This document shows positions 15-61,624 of a DNA stretch of 64,000 nucleotides, one piece after another; within the stretch, counting starts at the first letter, position 1; each line of letters starts with the position of its first letter. The notes beneath the pieces were generated by a model. It did no database searches, was not told the DNA's origin, and saw nothing but the letters and a program-made list of their open reading frames with translations. The position numbers and the translations under genes are program-made. This stretch comes from Fimbriiglobus ruber. GTDB taxonomy: Bacteria; Planctomycetota; Planctomycetia; Gemmatales; Gemmataceae. The DNA lies in contig NZ_NIDE01000005.1 of the NCBI RefSeq assembly GCF_002197845.1, forward strand, positions 682,001-746,000. The letters are read 5' to 3'.

Positions 15-167
15 ATGGCCGACCCAGAACTGAAGCGGGAGGCCGGGAACGCCGTCCTGAAGCGGCTCATTTTATGGGTCGAGAAGGAAGCCCACCTCGC
101 AGGTGCGGACATCGAGCCGGAGATCACCAGCATCATGGCAAAACTCCAAAGCGGGACGAAGAAATGA
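15..167 (+). CDS. small phage-associated protein
   Basis: A 50-residue open frame starts at an ATG that follows a G-rich stretch (GGGGG, 7 bases upstream) and ends in TGA. The TGA overlaps the ATG of the next gene in an ATGA junction, so the two are translationally coupled. The product is charged and mostly helical (many Lys, Glu, Ala), with no signal peptide or membrane segment. I do not recognise a family. Its position just before a tail-type gene run suggests a small virion or connector protein, but that is inference only. Confidence 0.55.
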   Translation: MADPELKREAGNAVLKRLILWVEKEAHLAGADIEPEITSIMAKLQSGTKK

Positions 168-592
168 CTGCCATCCTCAAGAACATCACCATCGACCAGG
201 GTGCCGACTACCAGCGCCCGTTCCTGATCCTCGACGAGAACGGCAACCCCGTCGACCTGACGGGCGCGTACGCCGCCATGCAGGTGAGCACGGCGTACGG
301 GTTCCCCGCCGTCCTGACATTAACGACGTCCAACGGCGGCCTGGTCATCGGCGGGGAGAACGGCACGATCACCCCGGTGGTGTCGGCGGCCATGACCTCC
401 CCGCTCGTGCCGGGCAACTACCTCTACGACGTGAAACTGGTCTTCGCGAACGGCAAGACCGTACGCCCCTTCCAAGGCACCGCGACGGTCAGCCCCGAAG
501 TCACCGTCATCGTCCCAACCCCACCTTCCTCCGGAGGGCAATTCAACTTTTCAATCGCCGGGAATTCCGGTTTAGCAGCAGGAGTATTCTAA
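164..592 (+). CDS. phage structural protein (BppU/tail-type N-terminal fold)
   Basis: The 142-residue protein begins MTAILKNITIDQGADYQRP and continues with ILDENGNPVDLTGAYAAMQV. This matches a short beta-rich protein common in tailed phages, where the phrase 'I.QGA....' is followed by 'DL(T)GY.A.MQ(V/I)R'. The start at 164 is chosen because it overlaps the upstream stop (ATGA) and because the family starts there; an earlier in-frame start at 74 would run through the upstream gene. It lies first in a run of tail-type genes, one base before the next ATG. The exact virion role (baseplate, neck or tail) cannot be told from sequence. Confidence 0.7.
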   Translation: MTAILKNITIDQGADYQRPFLILDENGNPVDLTGAYAAMQVSTAYGFPAVLTLTTSNGGLVIGGENGTITPVVSAAMTSPLVPGNYLYDVKLVFANGKTVRPFQGTATVSPEVTVIVPTPPSSGGQFNFSIAGNSGLAAGVF

Positions 593-593
593 T

Positions 594-2249
594 ATGACTT
601 GGACGCAGACCACCATCAACATCCTCGACGGAGCGGGCAACAGCAAACCGATCATCGCCTACACCGACGGCACGAATTTCTCGTTCGCGCACCCTCTGCT
701 CGATAATACCGGCGCCATCATCTCACCCGCCACCGCCGGCAACCAGGCGACGATGATTACGGCGTTGGGTTTGTTGTCCACGTCGGCCCTCCAGACGGCG
801 GGCAATACCCTGCTCTCCGAGATCCAAAGCACGGTCGCCCTCGACACGTCCGTGAACGGGCTCTTGGTCGCCCAGGGGTCGAGCACGTCCGGGCAGAAAG
901 GTCCGCTCGTCCAGGGGGCGGTTTCGACCTCCGCCCCGTCGCTGACCACCGGCCAGACCAGCCCGCTCAGCCTCGACCCTTCGGGCAACCTGCGGGTCGT
1001 TGTTTCGGGCGGCTCCTCGGGCGGCGGAACGTCGTCGAATTTCGCGTCGGCCTTCCCGTCCGCCGGCACGGCCATCGGGGCGAAAAACGGTTCCACCATG
1101 GTCAACCTCACGGCGGACGGCTCCGGCAACCTCAACGTCAACCTGGTAACCCCCATCCCGGCCGGTTCGAACACCATCGGGAACGTCGCGCTGGCAGCCG
1201 GGACCGCCATCGCCGGGAAGTTCGGCATCGACCAAACGACCCCCGGTACCACCAACGGGGTTCGGGTGAATGCCGCCCTGCCCGCCGGAACGAATAGTAT
1301 CGGCAACATCGGTACCGTTAGCACCGTGACTGCGCTCACGGCGATCACGAACGCGCTGCCCTCGGGCACGAACCTCATGGGCAAGGTGGGCATCGACCAG
1401 TCAACCCCAGGGACGACGAACGGGGTTCAAGTCAACGCCGCGTTACCCGCCGGGTCGAACGTGATCGGCGGCGTGACCATCGCCGACGGGTCGGCCGTCA
1501 CAATGGGAGCCAAAGCCGACTCTGCCGTAACAACCCCGGGTACCACCGCCTCGCTGATCGCCCTGACGAAGGGGCTCCTGACCGGCATCAACAGCCTCGT
1601 GACCGGGACGGTGCTCGCGGCGGGTACCAACCTGATCGGGAAATTCGGAATCGACCAGACCACGCCCGGCACCACCAACGCCGTCAGCGTGGGGTTCGTG
1701 GGTGGCTCGGCCGTGACGCTGAACCAGAAGACCAAGGGCAACTCCATTCCCGTCGTCCAGTCCGGCCCGCAGATCATCTCGGGCGGGTCGTTCACGCGCC
1801 CGGCGAATACGACCGCTTACGCCCAAGGCCAACTCGTCGCCAACAGCACGACGGCCGGTTCCGTCACCGTCCCGACGGCGTCGCTCGCATCCGCTAACGA
1901 TGTCCCCGTCTCGATCATCGGCGCGCGGCTGATCGTCGGTAACACCAGCCTGACCAACGGCGCCTTCCGCATCCACCTGTTCAGCGCGTTACCGACCATC
2001 GCGAGCGGCGACGGGGCGGCGATTTCCGTTTCGATGACGAACTGGTGCGGCTCGTTAGACGTCACACTCGTCTACGCCGGTTCGGACAGCGTCGCAGTCG
2101 GCAAGGCCGCCCCCAGCCCGGGCATGGGAACCGCGATCAACGCCGCCCCCTCGACGGGCACGCAGACGGTGTACTGGCTCATCGAAGCCCGCTCGGCCTA
2201 CACGCCGACTTCGGGCGAAACCTTCACCGTCAACTTCGAGGCGCTGTAA
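594..2249 (+). CDS. repeat-containing phage tail fibre-like protein
   Basis: This 551-residue protein is rich in Gly, Thr, Ser, Ala and Asn. It contains at least three copies of a module with the core GIDQTTPGTTN, near residues 207, 262 and 347, usually preceded by 'AGT..(I/M)GK' and followed by 'VRVNAALPAG'. Between them lie 'IGNV/IGGV' beta-strand repeats typical of elongated trimeric fibres. There is no signal peptide. The C-terminal 170 residues are non-repetitive and may be the distal or assembly domain. It starts 1 base after the previous stop and its TAA overlaps the next ATG, so the genes form one transcription unit. The fibre role is inferred from composition, repeats and context. 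Confidence 0.7.
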   Translation: MTWTQTTINILDGAGNSKPIIAYTDGTNFSFAHPLLDNTGAIISPATAGNQATMITALGLLSTSALQTAGNTLLSEIQSTVALDTSVNGLLVAQGSSTSGQKGPLVQGAVSTSAPSLTTGQTSPLSLDPSGNLRVVVSGGSSGGGTSSNFASAFPSAGTAIGAKNGSTMVNLTADGSGNLNVNLVTPIPAGSNTIGNVALAAGTAIAGKFGIDQTTPGTTNGVRVNAALPAGTNSIGNIGTVSTVTALTAITNALPSGTNLMGKVGIDQSTPGTTNGVQVNAALPAGSNVIGGVTIADGSAVTMGAKADSAVTTPGTTASLIALTKGLLTGINSLVTGTVLAAGTNLIGKFGIDQTTPGTTNAVSVGFVGGSAVTLNQKTKGNSIPVVQSGPQIISGGSFTRPANTTAYAQGQLVANSTTAGSVTVPTASLASANDVPVSIIGARLIVGNTSLTNGAFRIHLFSALPTIASGDGAAISVSMTNWCGSLDVTLVYAGSDSVAVGKAAPSPGMGTAINAAPSTGTQTVYWLIEARSAYTPTSGETFTVNFEAL

Positions 2250-3463
2250 TGTTGCGGCAGCTCTCCCCACCCGCGTGGGTGTTCCCCGGAGCGACGTTCG
2301 ACCTGAACTTCAGCGTCGGGCAGTATTGGGGCAATCCCGTGAACATGGCCGCGGCGATCGGGGCAAACGGGTCATACTGTTCCCTCGTGCAGGGGAGCAC
2401 GTCCGGCAACGGGGGGTACGCACCGGATTCGACGGGCATCGTCCGGACGTTCGCGGCCTACTACCCGCGCATCACCGCCGGCTGCGGCCTTTGGGCGGAA
2501 GGCAACTACACGAATTACGCGCTGTATTCCAACGACCACACGAACGGGGCGTGGACAAAAACGAGCATGACGGCCGCCAAGAACCAGACGGGCGCCGACC
2601 TGACGGCCAACGGCGCTTCGTTGCTGACCGCGACCGGCACGTCCGCAACGTCACTGCAATCGCTGACGTTAAGCTCGCACGCCTACTGTTTCTCGGCCTA
2701 CGTCAAGCGCGTGACGGGCACCGGGACGGTGAAGATCACCCTCGACGGTACGACCTATACGGACGTCACCGGCCAGATCAACAGCACCGGTTACACGCTC
2801 GTATCCGTCCCCGCCCAAACCCTCACGTCCGCAAACGTAGGATTTCAACTCGGCACGTCCGGCGACGCGATCGCGGTGCAGTTTTGTCAGTGCGAAAACA
2901 ACAACTACCCCACGACGCCGCTCCCCACCACCACTTCCACCAACGTCCGCGGCATCGACGAACCCGCCCACAGCGACCCGGGCGGCACCCGCCCCGGCAT
3001 GGGCCAGCGGGTCTTCCGCGACCTCATTTCCAGCGGCGGCCCGTGGTCGATGCTGCAATTCGGTTCCGGTAACGGATACGGGACGGGCAGTGGCGGAGTG
3101 TATACCGACGGCGGCGTGACCGTATCGGGCGTCGCGAGCGTCGCGGGAGCCGGTGGTAACGGCTCCTTCACGGCCCACGGCATCTCGTCCGGAACGACCT
3201 CGAACACGGGCAACATCGGACTCAACGCCATTAACAAGATCGCCGGCCGTGCGAACGGCGCGGGCGTGTCCTGCTGCCTGAACGGCGGCCCTATCGTGAC
3301 TGTGGCAAACACGGGAGCACTCACGCCGCAGGGGACGGCCTTTACCCACATGGGACTGGGCAACAACGGCGCGTCGGGCGTGCCGATCAACGGCTACACC
3401 TCGCGACTGGTATACTTCCCCTTCGAACTGACCGACAGCCAGATGATCGAGTACACCCGCTAG
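2249..3463 (+). CDS. phage tail/receptor-binding protein with jelly-roll modules
   Basis: The 404-residue protein starts at the ATG overlapping the preceding TAA (TAATG). Residues ~90-215 contain 'NYALYSNDHTNGAWTKT' and 'CFSAYVKRVTGTGTVKITLDG', the pattern of carbohydrate-binding jelly-roll domains frequent in phage head or tail decoration proteins. The C-terminus, 'GYTSRLVYFPFELTDSQMIEYTR', resembles the end of concanavalin-like domains in similar phage proteins. The family is recognised by motif only. It probably contacts host surface glycans. It ends with TAG, which shows that TAG is a normal stop in this gene set. Confidence 0.7.
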   Translation: MLRQLSPPAWVFPGATFDLNFSVGQYWGNPVNMAAAIGANGSYCSLVQGSTSGNGGYAPDSTGIVRTFAAYYPRITAGCGLWAEGNYTNYALYSNDHTNGAWTKTSMTAAKNQTGADLTANGASLLTATGTSATSLQSLTLSSHAYCFSAYVKRVTGTGTVKITLDGTTYTDVTGQINSTGYTLVSVPAQTLTSANVGFQLGTSGDAIAVQFCQCENNNYPTTPLPTTTSTNVRGIDEPAHSDPGGTRPGMGQRVFRDLISSGGPWSMLQFGSGNGYGTGSGGVYTDGGVTVSGVASVAGAGGNGSFTAHGISSGTTSNTGNIGLNAINKIAGRANGAGVSCCLNGGPIVTVANTGALTPQGTAFTHMGLGNNGASGVPINGYTSRLVYFPFELTDSQMIEYTR

Positions 3464-4104: not shown

Positions 4105-4319
4105 TCAAAGACTGCGTCACGGGCAAAGACGGCGAGAGCTATGACGTCGGCCGCGTCCTTTGGGTCGTCGGCGCGCTTTCATTTCTCGGTCTGTCCATTT
4201 ACGCGGCCTTCAAATCTCACACGTTCGACCCGTTGAGTTTTGGCACGGGGTATGGCGGAATCCTGGGTGGTGGCGGTGCGGGAATCGGTATGAAGGCCAA
4301 AACGGAGCCCGACGCATGA
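4083..4319 (+). CDS. small membrane protein, holin-like by position
   Basis: The 78-residue protein has one clear membrane helix (WVVGALSFLGLSIYAAF, residues ~30-46) and a second glycine-rich hydrophobic stretch (GYGGILGGGGAGIGM). Its C-terminus is short and charged. Small membrane proteins of this shape, directly ahead of spanin genes, occur in many phages of Gram-negative hosts and are often annotated as holin or lysis accessory. The start at 4083 overlaps the preceding gene, and the stop overlaps the next ATG (ATGA). A holin function is inferred from gene order only; the glycine-rich second segment is atypical for a classical holin. Confidence 0.6.
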   Translation: MAGFQALIKDCVTGKDGESYDVGRVLWVVGALSFLGLSIYAAFKSHTFDPLSFGTGYGGILGGGGAGIGMKAKTEPDA

Positions 4320-4645
4320 CCTTCTGGTGGAAGCTCGGAATCACCGCCGCGTTACTCGTCCTGTACGGGGTAGCCGTCTGGAAAATCCACAGTTGGTACG
4401 ACGCCTCGGGACAGGTCAAGGAAATGACCCGCGAAGAAACCGCGACCAAAGACGCGATGAAAGCCAGCAGCCAGATCGATACGTCGTTTTCCGAATCCAT
4501 TGCCAAGCTGCACGAACTCGAACTTTCCGCCAACCAGCAAATCGAGGCCGCCCATGAAACACCCGCTCCTGCTAATTGCAGCCTTAACCCTCGCGGGGTG
4601 TCAATTCTCCGCGCCGCAATCGCTGCCAATCATTCCGCCCGCTGA
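4316..4645 (+). CDS. i-spanin (Rz-like)
   Basis: The 109-residue protein has an N-terminal signal-anchor helix (LGITAALLVLYGVAVW) followed by a long charged periplasmic helix and a C-terminal 'ANCSLNPRGVSILRAAIAA' segment. This is the layout of phage inner-membrane spanins, where a late Cys and a '(V)..L..A' end are usual. The o-spanin gene begins inside its 3' end in another frame, the hallmark Rz/Rz1 arrangement. Together the two subunits bridge the inner and outer membranes and disrupt the outer membrane at the end of lysis. Family recognition is by architecture, not by search. Confidence 0.8.
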   Translation: MTFWWKLGITAALLVLYGVAVWKIHSWYDASGQVKEMTREETATKDAMKASSQIDTSFSESIAKLHELELSANQQIEAAHETPAPANCSLNPRGVSILRAAIAANHSAR

Positions 4646-5228: not shown

Positions 5229-8200
5229 ATGTCCCGCAACCGCCCGACCCATTATCAGCCGTTGATCGATTTCTTCGTCCCACCGGAGGAACCCCCGCCC
5301 GACCAATCCCCGCCCGCACGTCCAGCATCACCCCCGCCCCTTTTTTCCGACCGCTACCCTCGTAAATCCCCCGGCACTTCCCACGCCTCCCGTGTCGATG
5401 CGTCCCGCACCCAACGCCGTTCGCTTTTTGACGACCCTCCGGCCGACCCCGACGAGGCCTTCAGTGGCACGGTAATCCACCCGCAGGACGTTGCCAGCAG
5501 AGAATCGGCTCCCCCAAGCGGTCTCCCCCAATTCTCCGCGGGCACCGCCGCTCCGCTTCCCGCTGGGGCGGATTCCTCCTCGTGCCATCAGGCCCCGATG
5601 CCGGGGTCGGTCAACGAAGGAGGTCAACACGTGCAACCCGCATTACCCACCGGCCCGAAGGCCAAAGCCGCCGACATCATCGCCGCGATTCGAACCCTGA
5701 AGGAGGTCGAACACGCTCACCGGCTTCCCACGCCCGACGAGAAACGGATCCTTTCCCGTTTCGGCGGTTTCGGCGCCGTCGCCCTGTAGGTCTTCCCCGA
5801 TCCGGTCACCCGCACCTACAAGGACGGCTGGCACGACCTCGGTGAAGAACTCAAGTCGCTCCTCACCCCGGAGGAATACGACAGCGCCAAGCGCACCACC
5901 TTCACCGCCTTCTACACCTCCCCAATCGTTATGCAGTCCATGCACGCCGTCCTTCGACGTTTGGGCGTGCCGGACGAAGCGACCATTCTCGAACCCGGCT
6001 GTGGGATAGGAAACTTCCTCTCCCACGCCGCTCCCGGACACCGTTTCATTGGTGTAGAAATGGATTCCGTTTCCGGGCGGATCGCCCGCGCACTCCATCC
6101 CCAGGCCGACATCCGCATCGAGAACTTCCGCGACACCACGCTCCCGATGCTCGACGCCGTGATCGGAAACGTCCCCTTCGCCGACGTGAAACTCGACCTC
6201 GACGGCCAGCGCTTCTCGCTCCACGACTACTTCATTGCCAAGTCAGTCAACTCACTGAAGCCCGGCGGCATCCTCGCCGTCGTCACCAGCCACTTCACCC
6301 TCGACAAGCAAAATGCCGCGATCCGCGAGTACCTCGGCGACCGTGCCGATTTTCTCGGGGCGATCCGCCTTCCTTCCGATGCCTTTAAACGCGAGGGTAC
6401 ATCCGTCGTGACGGACATCGTGTTCTTCCGCAAGCGGGAGAGCGGCCTGGAGCCGAGCCACGTCGATCCCGCCTGGATGGAAACCGGGTCACTGCGGTTC
6501 GACGAGGCCACCGTCCCGTTCAGCCGCTATTTCCTGAACCACCCGGAAATGGTACTCGGAACCTGGAGCCGCAAGGACACGCTCTACGCCGACGGCTACA
6601 GCATCACCTCGAACGGCGACTTGGCGGAGCAGCTCCGCCAGGCCGTTGGCCGCTTGCCGCAATTCCAGCCGCTGCAGTCCTCATCCCAAAAACCAAATCC
6701 ACCGCCCGCCGAAACACACCACCTCGACACGCCAAACACACCACTCGTTTTCGTTCCCCCGCCGCCCGAGAAGCACGTCACCGAGGGCAGTTTCTTCGTC
6801 CACGAATCCCGTATCCACCAGATGGCTGACGGGCAGGCCGTTCCCGTCGTGTACGGCGGCGGGGAACTCTGGGCGCATGGCGGTTTGGTTGGCAGACGGC
6901 TCGGCGCTCTGATCGACCTGCGGGACAAAGCCCGGTACGTTCTCCGCTCGCAAAACGAGGGCTGGCCGGAATCAGCCCGCTCCGACGCCCGCCGCAAGCT
7001 CAACCACGCCTATGACGCTTTCAAATCCGCCTTCGGCCCGATCAACAAGACGACCTTCTCCGAGACCAAAGACGGCACCTCGATCCGCCGGATGCCGAAC
7101 CTCGTGAAATTCCGCGAGGACCCGGACGCCATGTTAGTCATGGCCCTTGAGGAGTACGACGAGGAGACCGGCGACGCGAAGAAAGCCCCGATCATGCTCA
7201 AGGACGTGGTTGGGAAATCGCCGCCGATCACCTCCGTTACCAGTGCCGAAGAGGGCTTGCTCGTCTCCCTCGACCAACGGGGGACGGTTGACTTGCCGTT
7301 CATCGCAAGGCTTTATGGCAAGCCCGAGGCTGCGGTCATCGCCGAGCTGGGTGAGTTGATCTTCCACGACCCCGAAACCAAGACATGGGAAACCGCCGAC
7401 GCTTACCTTTCGGGTAATGTCCGCGCGAAACTCGCGACAGCCGAGAAAGCCGGGATCGAACGGAACATCGAAGCACTTAAAGCCGTCCAACCGGAAGACG
7501 TGCTGCCGGGTGACATCGACGCCAACCTCGGCGCACCGTGGATTCCCGCGTCAGACATTCAGGCTTTCGCCGCCGATCTGTTTCATGCATCTCCGTCATC
7601 GGTGACTATCGGACACCTCGCCAAAGACGCAGTGTGGTCCGTGCAGGGCGATTACTCGACGGAGCGGTCGGTTTACGTGACTTCGGATTTCGGCACGTCA
7701 CGGGCGAACGGGTTGTGGCTGTTTGAGCTCGCCCTGAACATGAAAACGCCCGTCATCTACGATCCTGACCCGATGGACCCGGACAAGCGGGTGGTCAACC
7801 AGGAGGCGACGCTCGCCGCCAAGGAGAAGCAGAAGCAGATCAAGGAGCAGTTTAAAGGCTGGGTCTTCACAGATCCCGATCGCACGGAGCGGCTCGTGCG
7901 GATTTACAACGACGCCTTCAACAACCTCCGTCCGCGTCAGTTCGACGGGTCGCACCTTGACTTCCCGGGCATGTCCCAGGCGATTACCCTCCGCCAACAT
8001 CAGAAGGACGCCGTGTGGCGGGTCATGTCGGGCGGGAACACTCTGCTCGCCCACACGGTCGGGGCCGGCAAGTCCGGAGCAATGGCCGCGTCGTCGATGA
8101 AGCTGAAACAGGCGGGGCTGGCGAAGAAAAGCCTGATCGCGGTCCCAAATCATCTTCTTGAGCAGTTTTCCCGTGAGATCCAGCAGTTCTACCCGAATGC

Positions 8201-10649
8201 CAAGATCCTCGTGGCGGGTAAAGACGACTTCACCAAGGATCGCCGGAAGGTGCTGACCGCGAAGATCGCTTCGGGCGATTGGGACGCAATCATCGTCACA
8301 CATTCGAGTTTTGAACGAATTGGGATTTCGCGCGAGTACCAGGAGAAATTCCTTCGCGAACAAATCGCGGAGTATGACCAGATGCTCTGCGAACGCGCTG
8401 CCGAGAAAGGCCAGAACAGGAACATCATCAAAACCATCGAAAAGCAGAAAGCAGCACGCGAAGCCAAGCTGAAAGACCTGCTTGCCGAAGACAAAAAAGA
8501 TACCGGATTGGTGTTCGACGAGCTTGGTGTGGATCACGTTTTTATTGATGAATTCCAGCAGTTTAAGAACCTTGAGACTCCATCGAAGATGGACCGCGTT
8601 GCCGGGATTCAGACCGGCGGTTCCGAGCGGGCCTTCGACCTGTTCATGAAAGCCCGCTACCTCCACGAGCAGCACGCCGGGCATGGAATCACAGGGGCGT
8701 CAGGCACCCCCGTCAGCAACTCGATGGTCGAGCTCTACACACTCCAGCGGTACTTCGACCCCGAAGGCCTCCGCGATCGCGGCATCGAGCATTTCGACGC
8801 ATGGGCCGCGACCTTCGGCGAGGTCGTCGAGACGATGGAGATCAGTCCGGACGGCCAGACCCTAAAACCCCGCAGCCGGTTCGCCAAGTTTGTGAACCTG
8901 CCCGAGCTGCAGCAGATGTTCCGGGCCTTCTCCGACGTCCAAACTGCCGAGATGCTCAACCTGCCCCGTCCCGAACTGGAGGGAGGTAAGGCCCAGGTCG
9001 TGGCCTGCCCGATGTCGGACGAGCAGCAGCAGCTTCAGGACGAACTGGTCGCCCGCTACGAACGCATCCGCAGCCAGAAAGTGGACCCTCGCGAGGACAA
9101 CGCTCTCGCAATTACCACCGACGGCCGGAAACTCGCCCTCGATGCACGCATGCTTTCGCCCACGGCCGAGGACTTCCCCGGCTCGAAAGTAAACGCACTC
9201 GTCGAAAATGTCTTTGCCATCTGGCAGCGGACTGCACCCACCAGAGGCACACAGATGATCTTCTCGGACATGGGGGTCAATCCGACCCCGTGGGGATTCT
9301 CGGCATACGAGGAGGTTACGAAGAAGCTGATCGGCCGCGGCATCCCACGCGAGCAGATCGTCTCGATCGGTGAAGCGGATTCGGACGCAAAGAAAGCCGC
9401 CCTATTCGAGAAGGTCCGCCAAGGGTCTGTTCGTATCCTGCTAGGCAGTACGGCCAAACTCGGCACCGGGACCAACGTTCAGAAGCGGCTGGTCGCAATG
9501 CACCATCTCGACGCCCCGTGGAAACCCGCCGAGGTCGAGCAGCGAGACGGGCGAATCCTCCGCCAAGGGAACGAAAACAAAGAGGTTGCGATCTATCGTT
9601 ACGTCACGGAAGGAAGCTTCGACGCGTATATGTGGCAAGCGTTAGAAACAAAAGCTCGCTTCATAAATCAGGTCATGACCGGGGAATCCGGGGTTCGTCG
9701 GGCCGAAGATGTCGGCGGCCAGGAGCTCAGCTACGCCGAGGTGAAAGCCATCGCGTCGGGAAACCCTGCGGTGTTGACGCTCGCCGAGGCCGACGCCGAG
9801 TTGCAGCGGCTTGCCGTGCTGAAGCGAAACCATGCCGATGAGCAGTTCCTTGCCCGGCGCAACATGCGGGAACTCCCCCAGACCATCGACCGGTTACAGA
9901 AGCGACTCGCGGCGCTGACGGCGGATGCGGCTACGATCAGCCGGAACAACGAGTTAACCGTGGCGGGGAAGCCGGCCGATGAAAAGACGCTGGGTCATGC
10001 CCTCGATCGGCTGCCCGAACTGGTGGACCACCGGAGGCAATTCGCGGTCGGGAAGTACCGTGGCCTGACCTTCGGAATCGAGCGCCACCCCGGAGGCCAC
10101 GCTGACGTTTACCTAGAAGGGGCGGGTTTCCGCACCGCACAGCTTTCCCGTGACTCGCAGGGGCCGCGGGCGGTGATGAACGCACTCAAGCGGCTGGAGA
10201 CGACCTACGACGAACGGATCACCGAGACGGGCAAAGACCTGACGCTCGCTAGGACGCAACTCGGCGACTACGAGGCGCGGTTGGGACGGACCTTCCAGCA
10301 CGCAGCATATGCCGAGGAGTTGACCGCACTCCGCGACCAGTTGAAGACCGCTCTATCCGGCACACCAGCCGAAGGGGAACCGACATCCGGGGAACTGGCT
10401 GAGAAGATCAAGACGCTGAAGGCGGCTCATGCGGTTGAAGCGGCACCGGCGCGGGCCAGGATGGAGGAAAAGAAGGTCGAGCCGATCCGCCGACGGGTCG
10501 AACCCGAAAAGCCGGTCGAGGAAGTGCGGATTGCTCCGCCAGAAGTGGCGCTTGTTGCTGAGAGACCGGTCGCTGAGGAGCCCGAGGAACGCCCCATGCC
10601 ATCGTTCCGGCACAGGGTCGGCAAGGGTGGCCAGATGACGCTGTTTTAG
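5229..10649 (+). pseudogene. giant N6-adenine methylase-helicase (DarB-like), split by in-frame TAG
   Basis: Read through, this is one frame of 1806 codons. A Pro-rich N-terminus is followed by an N6-methyltransferase (motif I EPGCGIGNF near 5991; motif IV GNVPF near 6170). An SNF2-like helicase follows, with GAGKS near 8058, DEFQ in place of DEAH near 8543, and QRDGRILRQG near 9540. Proteins of this build are found in phages and plasmids and are linked to anti-restriction. A TAG at 5787-5789 breaks the frame after 'GGFGAVAL', and the frame stays open on both sides. The first ATG afterwards is 5931 (1572 residues), which keeps both catalytic regions but has no good ribosome-binding site. The family usually continues here, and TAG is one change from CAG (Gln). 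A nonsense mutation, readthrough, or sequence error are all possible. Confidence 0.85.
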
Positions 10650-16122: not shown

Positions 16123-16170
16123 CCGCCCGCGTTAGGTTTGAGGCTGCCCATGCCTCCCTGGCGCGGGCGG
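16123..16170 (+). terminator. hairpin upstream of the DUF2382 gene
   Basis: CCGCCCGCG (16123-16131) is complementary to CGCGGGCGG (16162-16170), a perfect 9-bp stem followed by CTTTATTTTA. It may terminate an upstream transcript or act as a 5'-leader structure for the stress gene 180 bases downstream. Confidence 0.45.
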
Positions 16171-16350
16171 CTTTATTTTATCGACTCCCTTCGACTCGTT
16201 TCAGCACCTTTCTCCTTCGACAACACACACCTCCTCCCCATTTCGAACGACGGAGGGCGAAGAGGAAACATTTCGTCCGCGGGCACGCTTAATGCTTTTC
16301 ATCCCCTCGACACGAGCGAGTTCTCGCTCCCATCTCCAGGGGTATTTGCT

Positions 16351-17307
16351 ATGTCGAACCGAAAGAAGAAGCACAACGCCGTTCTGGGCGTTTTCGAGAC
16401 CCGCGCCCGTGCGGATCAAGCCATTGCCGACTTGAAGGCGGCCGGATTCGACGACGCGGAAATCGGAATGGTTCACCGCGACGCCGAAGGGCACACGATC
16501 AAGACAGGCGCAGCCGACGACACCAAGGCCGGGGAAGGTGCCGCGATCGGGGCGGCCGCGGGTGCGGCGGGCGGAGCCCTGGTCGGGGCCGGCATTTTGG
16601 CCGGTGTGATCCCGGTGATCGGACCCATCCTGGCCATTGGGACGTTGGGCACTGTCCTGCTGAATGCCGCGGGCGGGGCAGCCATTGCGGGCATCGCCGG
16701 GGCATTAGTAGGCTGGGGCCTCTCCGAAGAAGACGCCGCGTACTACGAGAACGAAGTGAAGGCCGGGCACTTCCTCGTAACCGTTGAGACGAGCGACCGC
16801 GACGACGAAGCCCGTTCCATCCTCCATCAACACAGCGGATTTGATCGCTCGGCTTGGGCCGCCGTTCGCGCCGACCGCGCCAACATCTTGTCCGAGGGCT
16901 CATTTAAAGCGGACGACGGCCGGGTGATTCAATTGCACGAAGAGCACCTGAAGGCCGACAAGCAAACGGTGAATCGCGGGGACGTGAAGGTTCGCAAAGA
17001 AGTTCACACCGAACATAAGCAGATCACCGTCCCGGTCGAGCGTGAAGAGGTCGTGGTCGAGCGGCGGCCGGCCAACGGACGGCGGACCGCAACGGGGGAA
17101 ATTCAGGCGGAGGAAATTCGCATTCCGGTCAAGGAAGAGCGTGTCCATGTCCGTAAAGAGGCTGTGGTTACGGAAGACGTGAGCGTCGGGAAGCGAAAGA
17201 TTCACGACACCGAGACGGTGAGCGGTGATGTTCGAAAGGAAGACCTGGTTGTCGAATCCGAAGGCGGAGCCAATGTCCGCCAAACGACGAAGAAAGTGCA
17301 TAAGTAG
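16351..17307 (+). CDS. general stress protein with YsnF/AvaK (DUF2382) domain
   Basis: The 318-residue start at ATG 16351 gives the expected N-terminus 'NAVLGVFETRARADQAIADLKAAGFDDAEIGMVHRD', a 17M-type stress domain. A glycine-zipper membrane-like region follows (AAIGAAAGAAGGALVGAG... to IAGALVGWGL). From about residue 190 there is a DUF2382 domain of repeated charged strands (VNRGDVKVRKEVHTEHKQITVPVEREEVVVERR...IRIPVKEERVHVRKEAVVTEDVSVGKR). Such proteins are linked to stress and membrane or photosynthetic-reaction-centre-like PRC folds; the molecular role is unknown. An upstream AGGGG may serve as ribosome-binding site. A terminator follows directly. Confidence 0.8.
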   Translation: MSNRKKKHNAVLGVFETRARADQAIADLKAAGFDDAEIGMVHRDAEGHTIKTGAADDTKAGEGAAIGAAAGAAGGALVGAGILAGVIPVIGPILAIGTLGTVLLNAAGGAAIAGIAGALVGWGLSEEDAAYYENEVKAGHFLVTVETSDRDDEARSILHQHSGFDRSAWAAVRADRANILSEGSFKADDGRVIQLHEEHLKADKQTVNRGDVKVRKEVHTEHKQITVPVEREEVVVERRPANGRRTATGEIQAEEIRIPVKEERVHVRKEAVVTEDVSVGKRKIHDTETVSGDVRKEDLVVESEGGANVRQTTKKVHK

Positions 17308-21717: not shown

Positions 21718-23352
21718 GTAGCTGTCTATTCTGTACGTACGGGAACGGCCTGAGAATTTCCCAGTTCAGACGCGTGCCCGCTTCTACGAGGTAGCCATTT
21801 CGACCTTGGGAAAGATGCGATCCAGGATCGAGTCTTCCGGGCGTGGAATCTTCAGTTTGATCAGGAGATCTTCGAAGCAACTTCGCCCTGCCTCCATCCA
21901 CCGCGTCACTTCCGCGATCACGCTCGCCAACGTCCACTCCGTCAAGTACAACCGCAGCGATTCCAGTACGCTCATCAGGATCGTCCGCCGCCGCGCGCCG
22001 GCCGGGGTCTTACTCGTCCGACCCGTCTTCCGCGCGTCCGCCGAACCCCGGAGGGTCCGCTCGGCTTCGTTGTTCGTCCCCGCGACCGGGGCCGTTGCAC
22101 CGTTCGGTTGCGTCACCGCCGGGGCCGTTACGAACGGGAACAATTCCTTGGCCAGCATCAACCGCATCAGTTCATTGACCAGCAGGCGGTAGTCATTCCG
22201 GCATCCGTCGCCCGGCGGTTCGTCGGCCAGCCACTGGGCCGAACACAGGTCGTACACCCGCTGTTCCAGACCCTCGACCCGGGCGGTCCGGCCGGCATCG
22301 CTCAACCGGCCGTCGTCCCGTGCCCGGCACGCCGCCCGGTAGATCTCCAGCAACCGGTCGGTGAACGTCCGGTAGCCCTCGTGGTCGGGTTCCTGCAGGG
22401 TCAGCTTAATCGCCTTGCGGAGGAGGTGCGCCCAGCACTTTTGCGCGATCGTGAAAGTCGCGTACACGGCCGCGTCGTCGCTCACCAGAACACCCTCGAA
22501 CGTCTCCGGATCGAGAATGGTCTTGAGCGTCCCGGCATCCTTGTGAACCCCGAACAGCAACACCCGGGCCTGTTCGGACAGGAATGCCCACACGCTGTTC
22601 AGACTCCACCGGGTCTCGTCCGCGTGGACGACGGCCGCGTGGGCCAACAGGGTACACAGGGTGTCGAACTCCTTCTCCCAGTGCCGCGACAACTGGCGGA
22701 GCAAGGCGTCGGCTTGGGACTTCGGCAGCCGGAGTTGTTGGAAGAACGTCAGCACCTGGCACACTTTGTCGAACGACAGGCCGACGCCATGGACCAGGAA
22801 TGCGATCGCGACGACGATCTCGACCGCGAATTCACTGCGGCCGAACACCCCGGGGATCTGACCGTACTGGTTCTTGGGTCCGCGATAGATCTCGTACGCG
22901 ACCAGGACCGCACGCCCGCTCTCGAACCGCCACACCGGGCGGACGTGAGACCGGCGGCAGTCGGCGGGCGGGATGCCGGCCGGGAACACCTTCTCGGTGC
23001 GTTCCGCGCGAGCGATCTTGTCCGCGGTCGTGACCCGCCCGTGTCGCTTCGGCTTCTTCCTTTTCTGGGGCTTGTTCGAACGGGCGTGTTGTCGTTGCTC
23101 TTCGGCCCGCATGGAGAACGGTTGATCGAGTTTGGCGGTCGGCGGGGTGGGGAGGTGTTGCTCAAGTTCGCGGATGCGTTGGCGAGCGGCCAGGAGTTCG
23201 GCTTGGAGGGACACGATCAGGTCGACCAGGTGTTCGGGTGACACCTTGCCCTGCCGAACGTCCTGTTTGAGCTGCTCATCCCCCATGACGGAAAATTAGC
23301 GGCCACGGGCACATCCGGAAAGGCCCCTCAGCTGTACAGAATAGACAGCTAC
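21718..23352 (-). mobile_element. IS66-family element in the SIR2-STAND gene
   Basis: 1635 bp with perfect 19-bp inverted ends GTAGCTGTCTATTCTGTAC (21718-21736 and complement 23334-23352). The flanking direct repeat GGTCGATG is at 21710-21717 and 23353-23360; 8 bp is the length IS66 makes. It carries only a TnpC-type gene. The intact ends and target duplication argue for a recent insertion. Confidence 0.95.
21784..23286 (-). CDS. IS66 transposase (TnpC type)
   Basis: 500 residues. The N-terminus has a leucine-zipper-like coiled coil (LQAELLAARQRIRELEQHL) and a basic linker. The core has the IS66 pattern: 'VEIVVAIAFLVHGVGLSFDKV', 'VVHADETRW' (catalytic Asp), 'VLVSDDAAVY', 'CWAHLLRKA' and 'GTNNEAERTLRG' (catalytic Glu region). 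No TnpA/TnpB genes are present, so this is a single-gene IS66 variant. The start follows the left-hand IS end by about 50 bases. Confidence 0.9.
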   Translation of the reverse strand: MGDEQLKQDVRQGKVSPEHLVDLIVSLQAELLAARQRIRELEQHLPTPPTAKLDQPFSMRAEEQRQHARSNKPQKRKKPKRHGRVTTADKIARAERTEKVFPAGIPPADCRRSHVRPVWRFESGRAVLVAYEIYRGPKNQYGQIPGVFGRSEFAVEIVVAIAFLVHGVGLSFDKVCQVLTFFQQLRLPKSQADALLRQLSRHWEKEFDTLCTLLAHAAVVHADETRWSLNSVWAFLSEQARVLLFGVHKDAGTLKTILDPETFEGVLVSDDAAVYATFTIAQKCWAHLLRKAIKLTLQEPDHEGYRTFTDRLLEIYRAACRARDDGRLSDAGRTARVEGLEQRVYDLCSAQWLADEPPGDGCRNDYRLLVNELMRLMLAKELFPFVTAPAVTQPNGATAPVAGTNNEAERTLRGSADARKTGRTSKTPAGARRRTILMSVLESLRLYLTEWTLASVIAEVTRWMEAGRSCFEDLLIKLKIPRPEDSILDRIFPKVEMATS

Positions 23353-25529
23353 GGTCGATGCGCCCCAGTGCGGCCACGAATACATACGCCCTCTGGGCAA
23401 TCGCGCTCGGAATGCGCGCGTATTCATCCCGGACGATCGCGTCAAAGTTCGTTCCAGAGGTCAACTCACGCAGCGCGACCAGCAGATCCTTTTCAGCCAG
23501 CCGCTCGAAATGCTCCCGTTGCTCCTCTAGCGGAAGCCCTTCCAGCTTGCCAAGGCATGTCGGGTATTTAGCCAGAGCCGCGAGTATCTCGTTGATCTCC
23601 CGGTCCGACAGCGCACCCAGCACATACTCTTCACTTACGAACTTCGTGTCGAGATACTGCTTGGCGATCTCCCACTGGCTTAGCCGCTCCTCTAACAGTA
23701 TGGTCGCCGGCACCTTGTGCTGCCGGAGCGCGTTGACGAAGTGCCCGATGTCCACAATCCGCTCGCTCGCGTGCGAGATGATGATGAAAATTCGCTTCGG
23801 CTGCTCTTTGTCCACGAGCGGACGGATGAACCGCATGTCGAACGGCGTACCCGAAATGTGCATCAGCGCAATCGCGCCGTAGGAGTTCGCCAGATCATAG
23901 GCCGCCGTTCGCAGCAGGGTCGTTTTGCCCGTACCGGCCGCACCGGTCACAAGGTAGGCACTGGCCTTGAGGGTGGGCTCGACCAGTTCTGGGAAGATGC
24001 CCTCCATCAAGTGATCAAAGGCATCGCGGATGGGGGGAATCTTGTCCCGAATGTCGCCCCAGGTCGGCTCAGCACCCTTGAAGAAGGCGGCGGGGTTCGC
24101 CAACCCCGTGCAGTCCGGCGCCCGCACCATGTAGAACGACTCGCCAATTTTCTGAAAGCGATTGTCAGCGTCCGGCAGGAGGAAGGCATAACCCTGCCGC
24201 TCGACAAGCGGCAGCGCGACCCGGTTCTGCAGTTGCCACGTGTCCTTGAGCGCGACCAGGAATTCGGCCGCGTCGAGAGGCAGAAGCTGGATGTTGTATT
24301 TCTCCCGCCAGAAAGTCTCTTGCAGCGGGGTCGAGCCCGGCCTGACCGCATAGCTCAGAGGCAGAGTTTCGATGTTCAGCTCTTCTCGACAGGCATCCAG
24401 TATTTCCCGCAGATTGTCATCGGCCATCGAGTACCCGACGAAGATGAGCGTTCGCCCGAGTAGGTCGCGCTTCAGCCGCTTGAATAGCTTGGTGCGGTGC
24501 TTCTGGTAGTGGCGGTAGTCCTCTCGTGTCAGAATCAACCGACCTTCCGGTGTGTTTGCGTGGTCGGCGCTGCCGTGCAACTTGTAATACGGGATGTCCT
24601 CCTCGGACAACTTGTTGATGTCATCGGTGGCTGAGAACACCTGAAAGACGTTACCCGCTGGCACAATTGTCTTGTCCCGCGCGGCCTTCTCGACGAGCAG
24701 GTCGTAATTCGTCGTGTATATGCAGTCCCACGGAAGCTGAACGAGGGCCAGTTGCGCCGTTCCGTAGGGGAACGAGTCGAGGAGCCTGTAGACGTACTCT
24801 GACACGGCAGCGCTGCCGAGCTTGTGCCGCGCCATCTCCGCCGCATCCGAGAGGGTCAGTTTCTCGTTGGGGCTATCGAGCAGATCGCGGCAGATGTGCT
24901 CCGCCAGGTCATTGCCGAGCGGGCACCTGACACCTTTTGCGTTCTCGATCCCGTAGTTCACGCCCGCGCCGAGAAACAGGCACGCGGATCGTTCTGTCAG
25001 GTGGTCGCATATCGATTCGAGGGCCACCTGCGTTTTGTCATCAATGACCATGAGGGCCTCTGGGCTGTTAGAACCTTCCGGCCTTAAAATCAACGTCGTT
25101 TGTGCGACATACTGTTTTCTTCTCTATCTCTGGAAACGCGTTAACGTTCCCGTCCCGTCTTTTTAGCCATATCGGTAGTGCCGCGTGACCAAAACGCTCG
25201 GTAATAGCTCGTCGGCAAAGCTGGTACATCCGATACGGCAAAAGCGTCCGCTTGAGACGGACTGCACCTGGATGCGCAAGCCAAGTCCTGAAAATCGATC
25301 GCGGCGAACCCCACGCGTGTACTCAAAACACGAAAGCGTCATTCTCCGGCGCTAGCGACTGTGTGCCAAGAGAAGAGGCAAGAATGGTTGGGACAGCGTG
25401 CGCTGCTATTGCCCAAATCCAAGTCTGGCACTGCCAGACTTGCCATAGAAAACCGTGCGAAACCGCTATAAAATGTGTGAAGTGTGGGAATCCGGATTGT
25501 CACGGCGAATCGACGCAACTCTTGACGTT

Positions 25530-35286: not shown

Positions 35287-35421
35287 GGGTGCAGTACAAG
35301 GTTTGCTATCAGATTCTGCCCCGCTAAATCGCGTGATCCAAGTTCGCTTTCTCACCAAGGACTTCGGAAACGGGTCCCCCATTTTAACAGGCCTATTTTT
35401 CTCGAAGTCGTTGCGTTACCC

Positions 35422-37125
35422 TAGGCTGATCGGAAGTCAGGCTGGCCGTGGTTTCGGGTTCATCCCGGATCTGGTACGGTTTTTCCCGGGGCCGAGTCGG
35501 TCCCGAGGAACTTCCGCCGTAGCCACTGGACCGTCGACCCGAACATCTGTTTCGCCCACGTCTGAACGACCTTCTCGGGAACCCGCTCGAGGTCGCCCTG
35601 GATCTGCTCCGGGGTAGTCGTCCCGATCATGGCCCCCAACCCCACGCTCAACCCCGTCAACCCACTGGCCGATTGGTCCCCGGACAAGCGCTTGAGAACC
35701 CCGAACGCGGATTCCACGATCTCCGTACTCCCGACCAGCCGTTCGCCCGGGTGGGCCGCCCGGGTCTCCCGACCGACGTACGCCCGCAACCGGTTCCGCA
35801 AGCGTTCCGTGGTCGGATGGTCGCGGGTCGCCAACGGTTCCCACGCCTCGGCGACCAGGGCCGGGGTCCGGGCGCCGAACCCCTCGACCCGGACCACCCG
35901 GACGGTCGCCTGGGCCAGCGCGTGTTGGTCGGCCCAGACCGGCAGCGCCGCCGCGTACCCGGCCACCCACCCGTAGTGCGCCACCACGTCCGCATCCGGT
36001 TCCGCGGCCTGCAACTTCCGCAGAACGAACGGGCCGAACCGGACGAACGCGGCCACACTCAGGTACCGTCCCCGAGCCCGCAACGTTGGGGCCATCAGGT
36101 GCGCCGACCGGGTCTGGCGAATCGCCGCCGCGGTGGCCGCCATCTGGCGGGTGAACGCCGCCCACTGGGGATCGCCCTCCCAGTAGTGCTTGAGCAGGTT
36201 AGCCGCGACGTGGGTCACGTCCGCCACCCCGACGGTGTCCGGATACCGGACCCGGAAGTCCTGAATGCCGGCCCGCCATTCGGTCGCCCCGTCGGACACG
36301 ATCTGCCGCGGCGGCCCGGTCCGGGCGACCGCGTCGGCCAGCGCGGTGGCGACCTGCGCGCGGTTCGTGGTGGCCATCGGAACCAGGGCCAGGAGATGCA
36401 CATCAGCCAACGGGAGGGGGCGGACCCCGAACGGCACCTGATCGAGTGGGATGCCAAAGATGGCGAACAATTTCTGGTGACCGATCTGGAGGGTGTGGTC
36501 GATCAGCCACGCCCACGAGTGGTCGTGGGCCAGGGGGCGCGTGAGGTGGGCGTACCCGAGTCGGACGACCCACGACCGGACGGTGGTCGGGCACGGCGTC
36601 CGGTCGGTGTCCAGGGCGGTCGGCCCGGCGGCGGCCACGACGGCCAGCGCGGCGGCCGTTCCGCGGAACGACAACCCGGCCTGCCGGACGAGGGCGACGG
36701 CGAGACCGATGACGGCGACGGGGTATTGGCCGCCGCGGGGGGACAAATCTTTTTGGGGGGCGCGACATCGCCCGCGTCGGCCCCATCCGGGCGATACCGG
36801 GCGACTTCCTGTTCGAGGTGGTCGACCCGTTGTTGCAGGTGGTCGACCCGCTGTTGCAGGTCCTCGGCCCGCTGACGATGACGTTGGCGGGACGCGACGA
36901 GATCCCGGACGCGGATGGTCAAGGCTTTCTGTTCGGCTTTGCGGGCGGCCGCTTTCGCTTTCCAGGCGTCCCGCGAGCGGACCAGTTTGGGGATCAGAAT
37001 CCGGGGCGGGGTGTGGAATGCCGTTGCGGTTGCCATGCGAGCCTCGTGCCCGACAAGCGGGAAACAGTTCCCGGAAGTAGAATCGCGCGAATAATCCGCG
37101 ACAAGCCCAACTTCCGATCAGCCTA
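35422..37125 (-). mobile_element. IS nested in ISKra4 copy 1
   Basis: 1704 bp with 16-bp perfect inverted ends TAGGCTGATCGGAAGT (35422-35437; complement 37110-37125) and a 9-bp target repeat GCGTTACCC (35413-35421 and 37126-37134). Copy 2 of the host element has the uninterrupted target. I cannot assign the family with confidence; it is a DDE element with a two-frame transposase. Confidence 0.9.
35460..37036 (-). CDS. transposase of the nested IS, two frames
   Basis: The N-terminal part (from ATG 37036) is a basic coiled coil (LQQRVDHLQQRVDHLEQEVARY). It shifts by -1 at a C6A5 run (minus strand, near 36754-36764) into a frame that runs to 35460: 'YPVAVIGLAVALVRQAGLSFRGTAAAL', 'QIVSDGATEW' (candidate catalytic Asp), 'VGVADVTHVAANLLKHYW' and 'GSTEIVESAFGVLKRLSGDQ' (candidate Glu). 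The slippery site and single clean shift suggest programmed frameshifting. The family is left open. Confidence 0.75.
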
Positions 37126-37178
37126 GCGTTACCCTGTCCGCGGGACGGATTCCTCACGCCCACTCACGGAATGCCACG

Positions 37179-38859
37179 ATGGCACGCGCGACCTCGCCGG
37201 CGGCGACACTCGAACCGCACCGCCGCTACCTCGAAGGGGTCGCCAAGCACTTGGCCGACGAACTCTGGGGCGACAACGGTCCGCCGTGGGGCACGACCCT
37301 GACGGACTTGGAAGACATGGCCCTCGCGGCCCGCGCGATCCTGACCCAGAAACTCCTCGAACGCGGAGTGACCCGACAGGCCGCCGCGCTCCGGGCGCAA
37401 CGGCCCCCGGACGCCCAGAACTGCCCCGACTGCGAGTGCCCGTTCCCGCATCCGGCCGAACCATCGCCCCGGGAGATGACGACCCGCGGGGGTGGCCTCA
37501 TGTGGGACGAACCGAAGGACTATTGCCCCCGCTGTCGGCGGGCTTTTTTCCCCTCAGGGCAAGAGCTTGGGGGTCGACCGCACGCGGTATCGTCCGGCCC
37601 TTCAGGCCAAGATCGTATTCGCCGGCGCCAACAACACGTCGTACGCGCAGGCCGAGCGGGATCTCCGCGCCCTGGCCGACATCGACCTCTCGGACAAGCA
37701 AGTCCGGCGGACCTGCAAGGCGATCGGGCACGAGCGGGTGGCCGAGCGGGACGCGGCCGTGGCACACGATCTCCAACAACCGCTGACCGACCGCAAGAGT
37801 GTGCCCGAGGGGGTGACGGCCCCCTCCCTAGGAGTCGTCGGGGTCGACGGCGGACGGTTGCAAATCTTCGAACGCGGCCGGACCGGCGAGGCCGAACCGC
37901 CGGAAGACATCCACGACGACACACTGTTCCCGGACCCGGACCCGTCGCCCACGACCCATTGGTGTGAGGACAAGATCGGCGCCCTGTTGACGATGACGAG
38001 CGAGGAGAAGGGCCGCGACCCGTGCCCGGAAATCCCGGCCCACTTCGTCGACCGGAGTTGGATCCCGCAACTGGCGAAGGAATTGAAGGCCCGGCGGTCG
38101 GCCGGGAGTACCGCGACGGAACCGCGGCCGGACCCGACGCCCGACGCACCCGCACCGTCCGCCGCACCCGCGCCGACGGTCACGTGGGTGCCGGAGGTGG
38201 TGACACGGACATTGGTGGCGACCCGCCAGCGGTGGGCCGCGTTCGGCCCGATGATGGCCGCGGCGGCGTGGCGGGCCGGGTTCTTCGGGGCCCCGCGACG
38301 GGTGTTCCTGGGGGACGGGGCGGAGACCAATTGGACGGTCTGGCGGAATGACTTCTCGTCGTTCACCCCGGTGTTGGATTTCATTCACGTGGTGAGCTAC
38401 GTGTTCGCGGCGGCGATGGCCGGGCGGGCGTCCGGCGACGGGTGGGTCATCTATGAGCGGTGGATTCGGTGGGTGTGGGCCGGGGATGTCGCCCAGGTGA
38501 TCACCGCGTTGACCGCGCGGCAGGCCGAGTTGGGGGTTCCGGGCGCTGAGGACGCGGCCACGAGTCCGCGGAAGGTGGTGGCGGCCGCGTTGGGGTCCTT
38601 CCGAAATAACAAGGATCGCATGCGGTACGCCGACTATCGGCGGCTCGGTTTACCGATCGTGTCGAGTTATGTGGAGAGTGCGGTGAAGCAATTTAACTAC
38701 CGGGTCAAAGGGACGGAAAAGTTCTGGCGGGAGGTGGGTGCCGAGGAGATGCTCCAATTGCGAGCCGATTACCTGAGTGACGACGAACCGATGGAAGAGT
38801 TCTGGGTACGACGACAAGCGAGCGAGTCTGGGCAGGCCCGCCATGCGCTTGCAGTATAG
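37179..38859 (+). CDS. ISKra4-family transposase (copy 1), two frames
   Basis: Frame A from ATG 37179 carries a zinc-finger-like CPDCECPF...YCPRCRRAFFP. It changes frame at T6C4 (37544-37553) into the DDE frame ending at 38859: 'LGVVGVDGGRLQIFERG', 'VFLGDGAETNWTVW', 'VLDFIHVVSYVFAAAM' and 'GLPIVSSYVESAVKQFNYRVKGTEKFW'. These are the ISKra4 landmarks, including the D..D..E spacing. The same split occurs in copy 2, which argues for programmed frameshifting rather than damage. Confidence 0.85.
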
Positions 38860-39152
38860 AAACGAACGATGTACTACACCCCGCACCCGCGCAGCCGCCT
38901 GCACCGCCACCAGGACACCCCGACAGACGAGCCGCGCGGGCGACCAGTAGCCTCGGCCGAGCGTGTCACGTGCGCCCGTCAAACCTTCTGTCATCCAAGA
39001 CAACTACCCACTCGAACTGGTTTGCAACCCGTCTTCGTCTCTCATCAAAATCTCGGATTTTTACTCTTGAACACCGATCCAAATTGGTTAATGTCTGGTG
39101 ACCTCTCCAAAATCTGTCGACATTTTCGTCAACTCATTCGTCTCGGTGAACC

Positions 39153-59742: not shown

Positions 59743-61624
59743 GGGTGTAGTACATGGTTCGTTTCTATACTGCAAGCGCATGGCGGGCCTGCCCAGACTC
59801 GCTCGCTTGTCGTCGTACCCAGAACTCTTCCATCGGTTCGTCGTCACTCAGGTAATCGGCTCGCAATTGGAGCATCTCCTCGGCACCCACCTCCCGCCAG
59901 AACTTTTCCGTCCCTTTGACCCGGTAGTTAAATTGCTTCACCGCACTCTCCACATAACTCGACACGATCGGTAAACCGAGCCGCCGATAGTCGGCGTACC
60001 GCATGCGATCCTTGTTATTTCGGAAGGACCCCAACGCGGCCGCCACCACCTTCCGCGGACTCGTGGCCGCGTCCTCAGCGCCCGGAACCCCCAACTCGGC
60101 CTGCCGCGCGGTCAACGCGGTGATCACCTGGGCGACATCCCCGGCCCACACCCACCGAATCCACCGCTCATAGATGACCCACCCGTCGCCGGACGCCCGC
60201 CCGGCCATCGCCGCCGCGAACACGTAGCTCACCACGTGAATGAAATCCAACACCGGGGTGAACGACGAGAAGTCATTCCGCCAGACCGTCCAATTGGTCT
60301 CCGCCCCGTCCCCCAGGAACACCCGTCGCGGGGCCCCGAAGAACCCGGCCCGCCACGCCGCCGCGGCCATCATCGGGCCGAACGCGGCCCACCGCTGGCG
60401 GGTCGCCACCAATGTCCGTGTCACCACCTCCGGCACCCACGTGACCGTCGGCGCGGGTGCGGCGGACGGTGCGGGTGCGTCGGGCGTCGGGTCCGGCCGC
60501 GGTTCCGTCGCGGTACTCCCGGCCGACCGCCGGGCCTTCAATTCCTTCGCCAGTTGCGGGATCCAACTCCGGTCGACGAAGTGGGCCGGGATTTCCGGGC
60601 ACGGGTCGCGGCCCTTCTCCTCGCTCGTCATCGTCAACAGGGCGCCGATCTTGTCCTCACACCAATGGGTCGTGGGCGACGGGTCCGGGTCCGGGAACAG
60701 TGTGTCGTCGTGGATGTCTTCCGGCGGTTCGGCCTCGCCGGTCCGGCCGCGTTCGAAGATTTGCAACCGTCCGCCGTCGACCCCGACGACTCCTAGGGAG
60801 GGGGCCGTCACCCCCTCGGGCACACTCTTGCGGTCGGTCAGCGGTTGTTGGAGATCGTGTGCCACGGCCGCGTCCCGCTCGGCCACCCGCTCGTGCCCGA
60901 TCGCCTTGCAGGTCCGCCGGACTTGCTTGTCCGAGAGGTCGATGTCGGCCAGGGCGCGGAGATCCCGCTCGGCCTGCGCGTACGACGTGTTGTTGGCGCC
61001 GGCGAATACGATCTTGGCCTGAAGGGCCGGACGATACCGCGTGCGGTCGACCCCCAAGCTCTTGCCCTGAGGGGAAAAAAGCCCGCCGACAGCGGGGGCA
61101 ATAGTCCTTCGGTTCGTCCCACATGAGGCCACCCCCGCGGGTCGTCATCTCCCGGGGCGATGGTTCGGCCGGATGCGGGAACGGGCACTCGCAGTCGGGG
61201 CAGTTCTGGGCGTCCGGGGGCCGTTGCGCCCGGAGCGCGGCGGCCTGTCGGGTCACTCCGCGTTCGAGGAGTTTCTGGGTCAGGATCGCGCGGGCCGCGA
61301 GGGCCATGTCTTCCAAGTCCGTCAGGGTCGTGCCCCACGGCGGACCGTTGTCGCCCCAGAGTTCGTCGGCCAAGTGCTTGGCGACCCCTTCGAGGTAGCG
61401 GCGGTGCGGTTCGAGTGTCGCCGCCGGCGAGGTCGCGCGTGCCATCGTGGCATTCCGTGAGTGGGCGTGAGGAATCCGTCCCGCGGACAGGGTAACGCAA
61501 CGACTTCGAGAAAAATAGGCCTGTTAAAATGGGGGACCCGTTTCCGAAGTCCTTGGTGAGAAAGCGAACTTGGATCACGCGATTTAGCGGGGCAGAATCT
61601 GATAGCAAACCTTGTACTGCACCC
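59743..61624 (-). mobile_element. ISKra4-type element, copy 2
   Basis: 1882 bp, almost identical to copy 1 and inverted relative to it. Left flank CTCTCGGAC (59734-59742) is the complement of the left flank of copy 1; right flank GCGGGTGCG (61625-61633) is the complement of the right flank of copy 1. Lacks the nested IS. Confidence 0.92.
59765..61445 (-). CDS. ISKra4-family transposase (copy 2), two frames
   Basis: Same protein as copy 1: frame A from ATG 61445, a shift at T6C4 (minus strand, near 61075), and the DDE frame ending at 59765. The translated DDE frame has the same 455 residues in both copies, so the copies are recent or kept alike by recombination. Confidence 0.85.

What the first reader, a model, noticed from the sequence alone, without database searches (positions are those of the whole stretch)
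5787..5789. In-frame amber codon inside the giant methylase-helicase
The frame from 5229 is open to 10649 except for one TAG. Flanking residues (GGFGAVAL|VFPDPVTR) fit the family's continuous N-terminal segment, and TAG is one base from CAG. Restart at 5931 would keep both catalytic modules. TAG is used as an ordinary stop at 3461 and at 10647, so code change is unlikely. Readthrough by a suppressor tRNA, a phage-resistance mutation or an error are the options.
Basis: partly seen in the sequence, partly recalled or inferred. Interest (0 to 1): 0.6.

Follow-up and report, generated by a model that had tools for sequence, protein, structure and literature searches.

The report
Amber-broken antirestriction gene in dying prophage
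A single stop codon interrupts a giant phage anti-restriction gene inside a prophage whose DNA-packaging gene is also broken, so it is most likely ordinary gene decay; an unusual stop-reading tRNA gene elsewhere in the same genome keeps a small chance of readthrough alive.

Summary
In detail: frame 5229-10649 holds one TAG, at 5787-5789. The gene is a DarB-type LPD36-methylase-SNF2 helicase (PHROG 'DarB-like antirestriction', 1481 bits) after the tail genes of a contractile-tailed prophage in a 12.4-Mb genome. In 74 relatives with at least 50% identity the position is serine in 63 (TCG in 43) and never a stop. CAG is not seen, so the likely source is TCG. Codons on both sides are as conserved as in intact genes, so the stop is recent or read through. 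The prophage's terminase gene has two frameshifts compared with a homologous prophage on the same contig. Two of the five other copies of the gene in this genome are broken by other lesions. Best reading: a recent nonsense mutation in a decaying prophage (0.68). Restart at 5931 would not keep the methylase whole: it removes LPD36 and the T-P motif of the cofactor pocket. No CTA-anticodon tRNA was found, but the genome has a Leu-type tRNA with anticodon UUA (C5:584738-584821), which by wobble could read UAG. Nothing shows that it acts: TAG ends 6 of 19 genes of this prophage, and no other in-frame stop was found in the genes compared. Low interest; read mapping would settle the base.

The parts
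5229..10649 (+). DarB-like gene (LPD36-adenine methylase-SNF2 helicase), 1806 codons, interrupted by one amber codon
   Evidence: (phrog_10089 DarB-like antirestriction, 1481 bits, residues 140-1738)
5787..5789 (+). in-frame amber codon TAG; serine, mostly TCG, in relatives
5229..5786 (+). N-terminal 186 codons before the amber: variable Pro-rich stretch, then the start of the conserved LPD36-like helices
   Evidence: (no Pfam match)
5652..5930 (+). LPD36-like helical domain and T-P cap, conserved; the amber lies inside it
   Evidence: helices 2-22, 28-35, 41-47, 61-70, 73-82; LPD36: four helices, GXGU motif; purifying selection
5766..5777 (+). GXGU motif (G-F-G-A), ending three codons before the amber
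5916..5924 (+). T-S-P, the motif X / TP cap of gamma-class adenine methylases, lost if translation restarts at 5931
5931..5933 (+). first in-frame ATG after the amber; no Shine-Dalgarno-like sequence seen upstream
5931..6660 (+). methylase core: EPGCGIGNF (motif I) and NVPF (motif IV, 6168-6179)
7992..9851 (+). SNF2-type helicase/translocase part (GAGKS 8061-8075; motif II DEFQ from 8547)
74..592 (+). tail-fibre assembly-like protein of the same prophage
   Evidence: phrog_1084, phrog_3304
2045..3463 (+). phage head spike fibre domain protein of the same prophage; ends in TAG
   Evidence: (NF048003)
4160..4645 (+). possible Rz-like spanin (weak match, E 6e-4)

Best explanation
The TAG is a recent nonsense mutation, most simply a serine TCG codon turned into TAG, in the darB-like antirestriction gene of a contractile-tailed prophage that is already defective. 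Shown: the single TAG, its absence from the relatives examined, the family, the prophage setting, the terminase frameshifts, and decay of two of the five other copies of the gene. Inferred: that the base is real, that translation ends at 5787 and leaves a 186-residue peptide without any catalytic part, and that the gene's original job was to methylate or shield injected phage DNA against host restriction, as P1 DarB does.
For: Relatives with at least 50% identity: 63 of 74 Ser, 43 TCG, none a stop. The gene follows head, tail sheath, tape measure, baseplate and tail-fibre genes. That prophage's terminase gene (C5:657.5-659.05 kb) is split by two 1-base deletions, while the homologous prophage at C5:552-574 kb has it whole in 512 codons. 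Of six darB-like copies in this genome three are broken: this amber, one frameshift on C17, several lesions at C5:869 kb; elsewhere about 3 of 68 (Fisher p about 0.006; loci not fully independent). Near-identical repeats, likely IS copies, lie in the same stretch. Codons between the stop and Met5931 show pN 0.11-0.24 and pS 0.48-0.60, like an intact pair (0.12 and 0.52), so the stop came late.
Against: Apart from the stop the frame is fully open over 1806 codons, so there is no second lesion in this gene. Purifying selection fits readthrough equally well. The terminase deletions and the amber rest on one assembly, without reads.
Confidence: 0.68

Rival explanations
1. Base-calling or consensus error: the real base gives a sense codon and the gene is intact.
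For: One substitution in one assembly; no read data; the rest of the gene looks fully selected.
Against: The assembly looks clean: 75 matches to the PSD1 family, nearly all in frames of 500-1500 codons, hold no internal stop, and the homologous prophage shows no internal stop in the coding frames compared. The terminase frameshifts in the same prophage make a real lesion less surprising.
Confidence: 0.15
2. The amber is partly read through, either by ordinary leakiness or by the genome's UUA-anticodon Leu-type tRNA (C5:584738-584821, minus strand), so that full-length protein is made at low level, with Leu in place of Ser if that tRNA acts.
For: ARAGORN and Rfam find a complete class II tRNA with anticodon UUA, 58.3 bits, 103 kb away on the same contig. 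Its nearest phage relative is a tRNA-Leu(UAA). Leu occurs naturally at this position in two relatives. UUA can pair with UAG by U34 wobble (general knowledge). In-frame stops under purifying selection are reported to be widespread in bacteria (PMC7918605).
Against: TAG is the ordinary stop of 6 of 19 genes of this prophage. No other in-frame stop was found in the homologous genes compared. The tRNA sits in a 47% GC island beside a transposase and a poorly paired second tRNA, so it may be a relic. Expression unknown.
Confidence: 0.12
3. Translation restarts at Met5931 and makes a shorter working protein.
For: In-frame ATG at 5931; motif I, NVPF and the helicase follow it.
Against: It would lose LPD36 and the T-S-P cap of the cofactor pocket. 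The region before 5931 is as conserved as in intact genes, so 5931 was not a long-standing start. No Shine-Dalgarno-like sequence is seen upstream, though none is seen before 5229 either.
Confidence: 0.05

Closest known systems
Phage P1 DarB and the LPD36-adenine methylase-SWI2/SNF2 dyad of polyvalent proteins (PMC5512222)
   Same: Same domain order, GXGU motif, TP cap, adenine methylase fold, SNF2-like helicase, next to late phage genes
   Different: NVPF instead of NPP(Y/F) at motif IV; interrupted by an amber codon; from a planctomycete-type prophage; packaging and antirestriction untested
Genes with in-frame stop codons under purifying selection (PMC7918605)
   Same: One stop inside an otherwise selected frame
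   Different: Here no conservation of the stop across genomes; relatives have mostly serine, and the host prophage has other lesions
Phages that recode stop codons with suppressor tRNAs (for example PMC10607447, 41 ORFs with TAG)
   Same: A stop-reading tRNA gene exists in the same genome
   Different: Only one in-frame TAG; TAG is used as a normal stop; the anticodon is UUA, not CUA

Membership tests
DarB-like antirestriction (methylase-helicase dyad) | Sequence match to the family profile over most of its length | tested here: met
   phrog_10089, 1481 bits, residues 140-1738
DarB-like antirestriction (methylase-helicase dyad) | N-terminal LPD36: helical domain with GXGU motif | tested here: met
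   Helices plus G-F-G-A in the model and alignment; definition in PMC5512222; no LPD36 profile was run
DarB-like antirestriction (methylase-helicase dyad) | EcoKI/TaqI-type adenine methylase fold with TP cap | tested here: met
   Model aligns with M.EcoKI (Z 20.0, rmsd 2.7, 212 residues) and M.TaqI (Z 18.4-19.5); read with the stop as serine
DarB-like antirestriction (methylase-helicase dyad) | NPP(Y/F) catalytic motif | tested here: not met
   NVPF, invariant in the ten aligned sequences; so filed as DarB-like, not as proven active DarB
DarB-like antirestriction (methylase-helicase dyad) | C-terminal SNF2/SF2 helicase | tested here: met
   SNF2-rel_dom 1.2e-6 and Helicase_C
DarB-like antirestriction (methylase-helicase dyad) | Late-gene setting; packaged in the virion; protects DNA in cis | tested here: inconclusive
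   Late-gene setting seen; packaging and protection not testable here
Stop-codon recoding | Many genes with in-frame TAG, and TAG rare as a terminator | tested here: not met
   One TAG only; TAG ends 6 of 19 genes of this prophage; 75 PSD1 matches without a stop
Stop-codon recoding | Cognate suppressor tRNA in the genome | tested here: inconclusive
   No CTA tRNA found (the tRNA list is not exhaustive); one UUA tRNA that could read UAG by wobble

The most novel reading that the evidence does not exclude
The full-length antirestriction protein is made only when the UUA-anticodon Leu tRNA is expressed. That tRNA lies between the lysis genes of the neighbouring homologous prophage and an integrase gene, so one prophage's tRNA would switch on another's antirestriction gene.
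Probability: 0.04. Interest if true: 0.75.

Novelty: new member of a known kind. Interest (0 to 1): 0.2.

Why it matters
As read here it is one more decaying phage gene, useful mainly as a recent lesion in a genome rich in prophages and in copies of this gene. It would matter more if the UUA tRNA is active, because that would show a bacterial chromosome carrying a working ochre/amber suppressor beside a gene that needs it.

Tried and rejected
Code change: rejected (one TAG, TAG as normal stop). CAG as the source codon: rejected, absent in the close relatives. Phage-resistance mutation: rejected, as the gene belongs to a prophage. A CTA-anticodon tRNA: a pattern search gave six places; two are in ordinary tRNA genes or arrays and the other four hold no tRNA. 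The genome tRNA search scored only 150 of 299 candidates and did not list a 44.9-bit tRNA that a local scan found, so a further suppressor cannot be excluded. A scan of viral contigs for the UUA tRNA found nothing, which says little as the pattern was narrow. DNA searches of phages and plasmids with the tRNA island gave only tRNA-Leu matches in phages and mainly IS1595 transposase matches in plasmids. The PDB sequence search with the whole profile gave only a weak SNF2 match.

Full report
Observation. Frame 5229-10649 is open apart from TAG at 5787-5789; the next start codon in frame is ATG 5931. The window lies at C5:682001-746000 of a 12.36-Mb genome in 20 contigs. No tRNA lies in the window.

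What the gene is. Read with the stop as serine it matches PHROG 10089 'DarB-like antirestriction' with 1481 bits over residues 140-1738, with weaker helicase and methylase matches in Pfam, NCBIfam and PADLOC. A model of residues 142-514 of the gene (mean pLDDT 82.5) aligns with M.EcoKI and M.TaqI. Published work describes this architecture as LPD36-adenine methylase-SNF2 helicase with P1 DarB as archetype, a GXGU motif in LPD36 and a TP cap on the methylase (PMC5512222). Here G-F-G-A ends three codons before the stop, and Y-T-S-P ends two codons before Met5931.

Setting. Upstream on the same strand lie, in order, head maturation protease, virion proteins, tail sheath, tape measure, baseplate and tail-fibre genes, then tail-fibre assembly and spike-fibre proteins in the window. 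This is a contractile-tailed prophage. A homologous prophage lies at C5:552-574 kb and beyond (64-79% DNA identity by segment). The outer limits of the two prophages were not worked out.

The codon. Across 74 relatives of at least 50% identity the site is Ser in 63 (TCG 43, TCC 15, TCA 3, AGC 2), otherwise Thr, Leu, His, Val, Glu, Arg or Ala, never a stop and never CAG. Some records appear in two collections, so the number of independent sequences is lower. In the methylase part the window copy is closer to L016 and L018 (both TCG) than to the paralogue L009 (CAC, His), although its helicase part is closer to L009 and L011, so the gene looks mosaic.

Selection. pN and pS before the stop, between the stop and Met5931, and after it are like those between intact copies. 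The stop is therefore recent, or it is read through; a long-standing start at 5931 is unlikely.

Decay. Five other copies exist in the genome: three open, one with a frameshift, one with several lesions. In this prophage the terminase large subunit is broken by two single-base deletions while the homologous prophage has it intact. Without terminase it cannot package DNA (established knowledge), so selection on its antirestriction gene should have lapsed. Broken relatives elsewhere are few: an internal TAA (L160), a transposase-like insertion (L193), a frameshift (L226).

Suppression. Of the tRNA genes found, one has anticodon UUA: C5:584738-584821, with complete acceptor, D, anticodon and T arms, Leu-like. 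It lies in a short island of about 47% GC with an IS1595-type transposase, between lysis genes and an integrase. In E. coli ochre suppressors read UAA and UAG (general knowledge). Leu occurs at the site in two relatives. But TAG is a common terminator of this prophage's genes, no other in-frame stop was found in the coding frames of the homologous gene pairs compared, and 75 matches of a chromosomal family have none. I keep suppression as a minority reading.

Verdict. A real feature, most likely a recent nonsense mutation in a defective prophage; a known kind; low interest.

Noticed in passing
G000 C5:584738-584821, minus strand (L092; L101:9738-9821): Leu-type tRNA with anticodon UUA (stop-reading) in a 47% GC island with an IS1595-type transposase, between prophage lysis genes and an integrase.
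   Followed up: partly
L101:9206-9281, minus strand: Second tRNA in the same island, anticodon ACU, poorly paired anticodon stem; possible relic.
   Followed up: no
G000 C5:657500-659051: Terminase large subunit of the window's prophage split by two single-base deletions; intact homologue at C5:552730-554268.
   Followed up: yes
L199:8881-9945, L202:8422-9507, L205:8869-9915: In-frame insertions of about 350 codons inside DarB-like relatives; intein splicing or LAGLIDADG matches, so probably inteins.
   Followed up: partly
window 5652-10646 against L009, L011, L016, L018: Mosaic gene: methylase part nearer L016/L018, helicase part nearer the genome's own paralogues L009/L011.
   Followed up: partly
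window 10632-10646: C-terminal QMTLF (QMSLF, QQTLF, QRTLF in paralogues) resembles a beta-clamp binding motif; from memory, untested.
   Followed up: no
window 8547-8558: Helicase motif II reads DEFQ here and in three relatives, DEAH in most others, DESG in L013.
   Followed up: no
G000 C4:281282-283411 and C17:218190-218937: Two tRNA arrays (20 and 9 tRNA genes) outside the window.
   Followed up: partly
window 21718-23353, 35418-37126, 37126-38881 and 59743-61498: Repeats 99.9-100% identical to copies at C5:588-592 kb or to each other; likely recent IS copies.
   Followed up: no
L193 (Blastopirellula marina DSM 3645), L160: Other broken DarB-like genes: a transposase-like insertion in L193, an internal TAA in L160.
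   Followed up: partly
window 16138-17307: YsnF/AvaK domain protein (TIGR02271).
   Followed up: no
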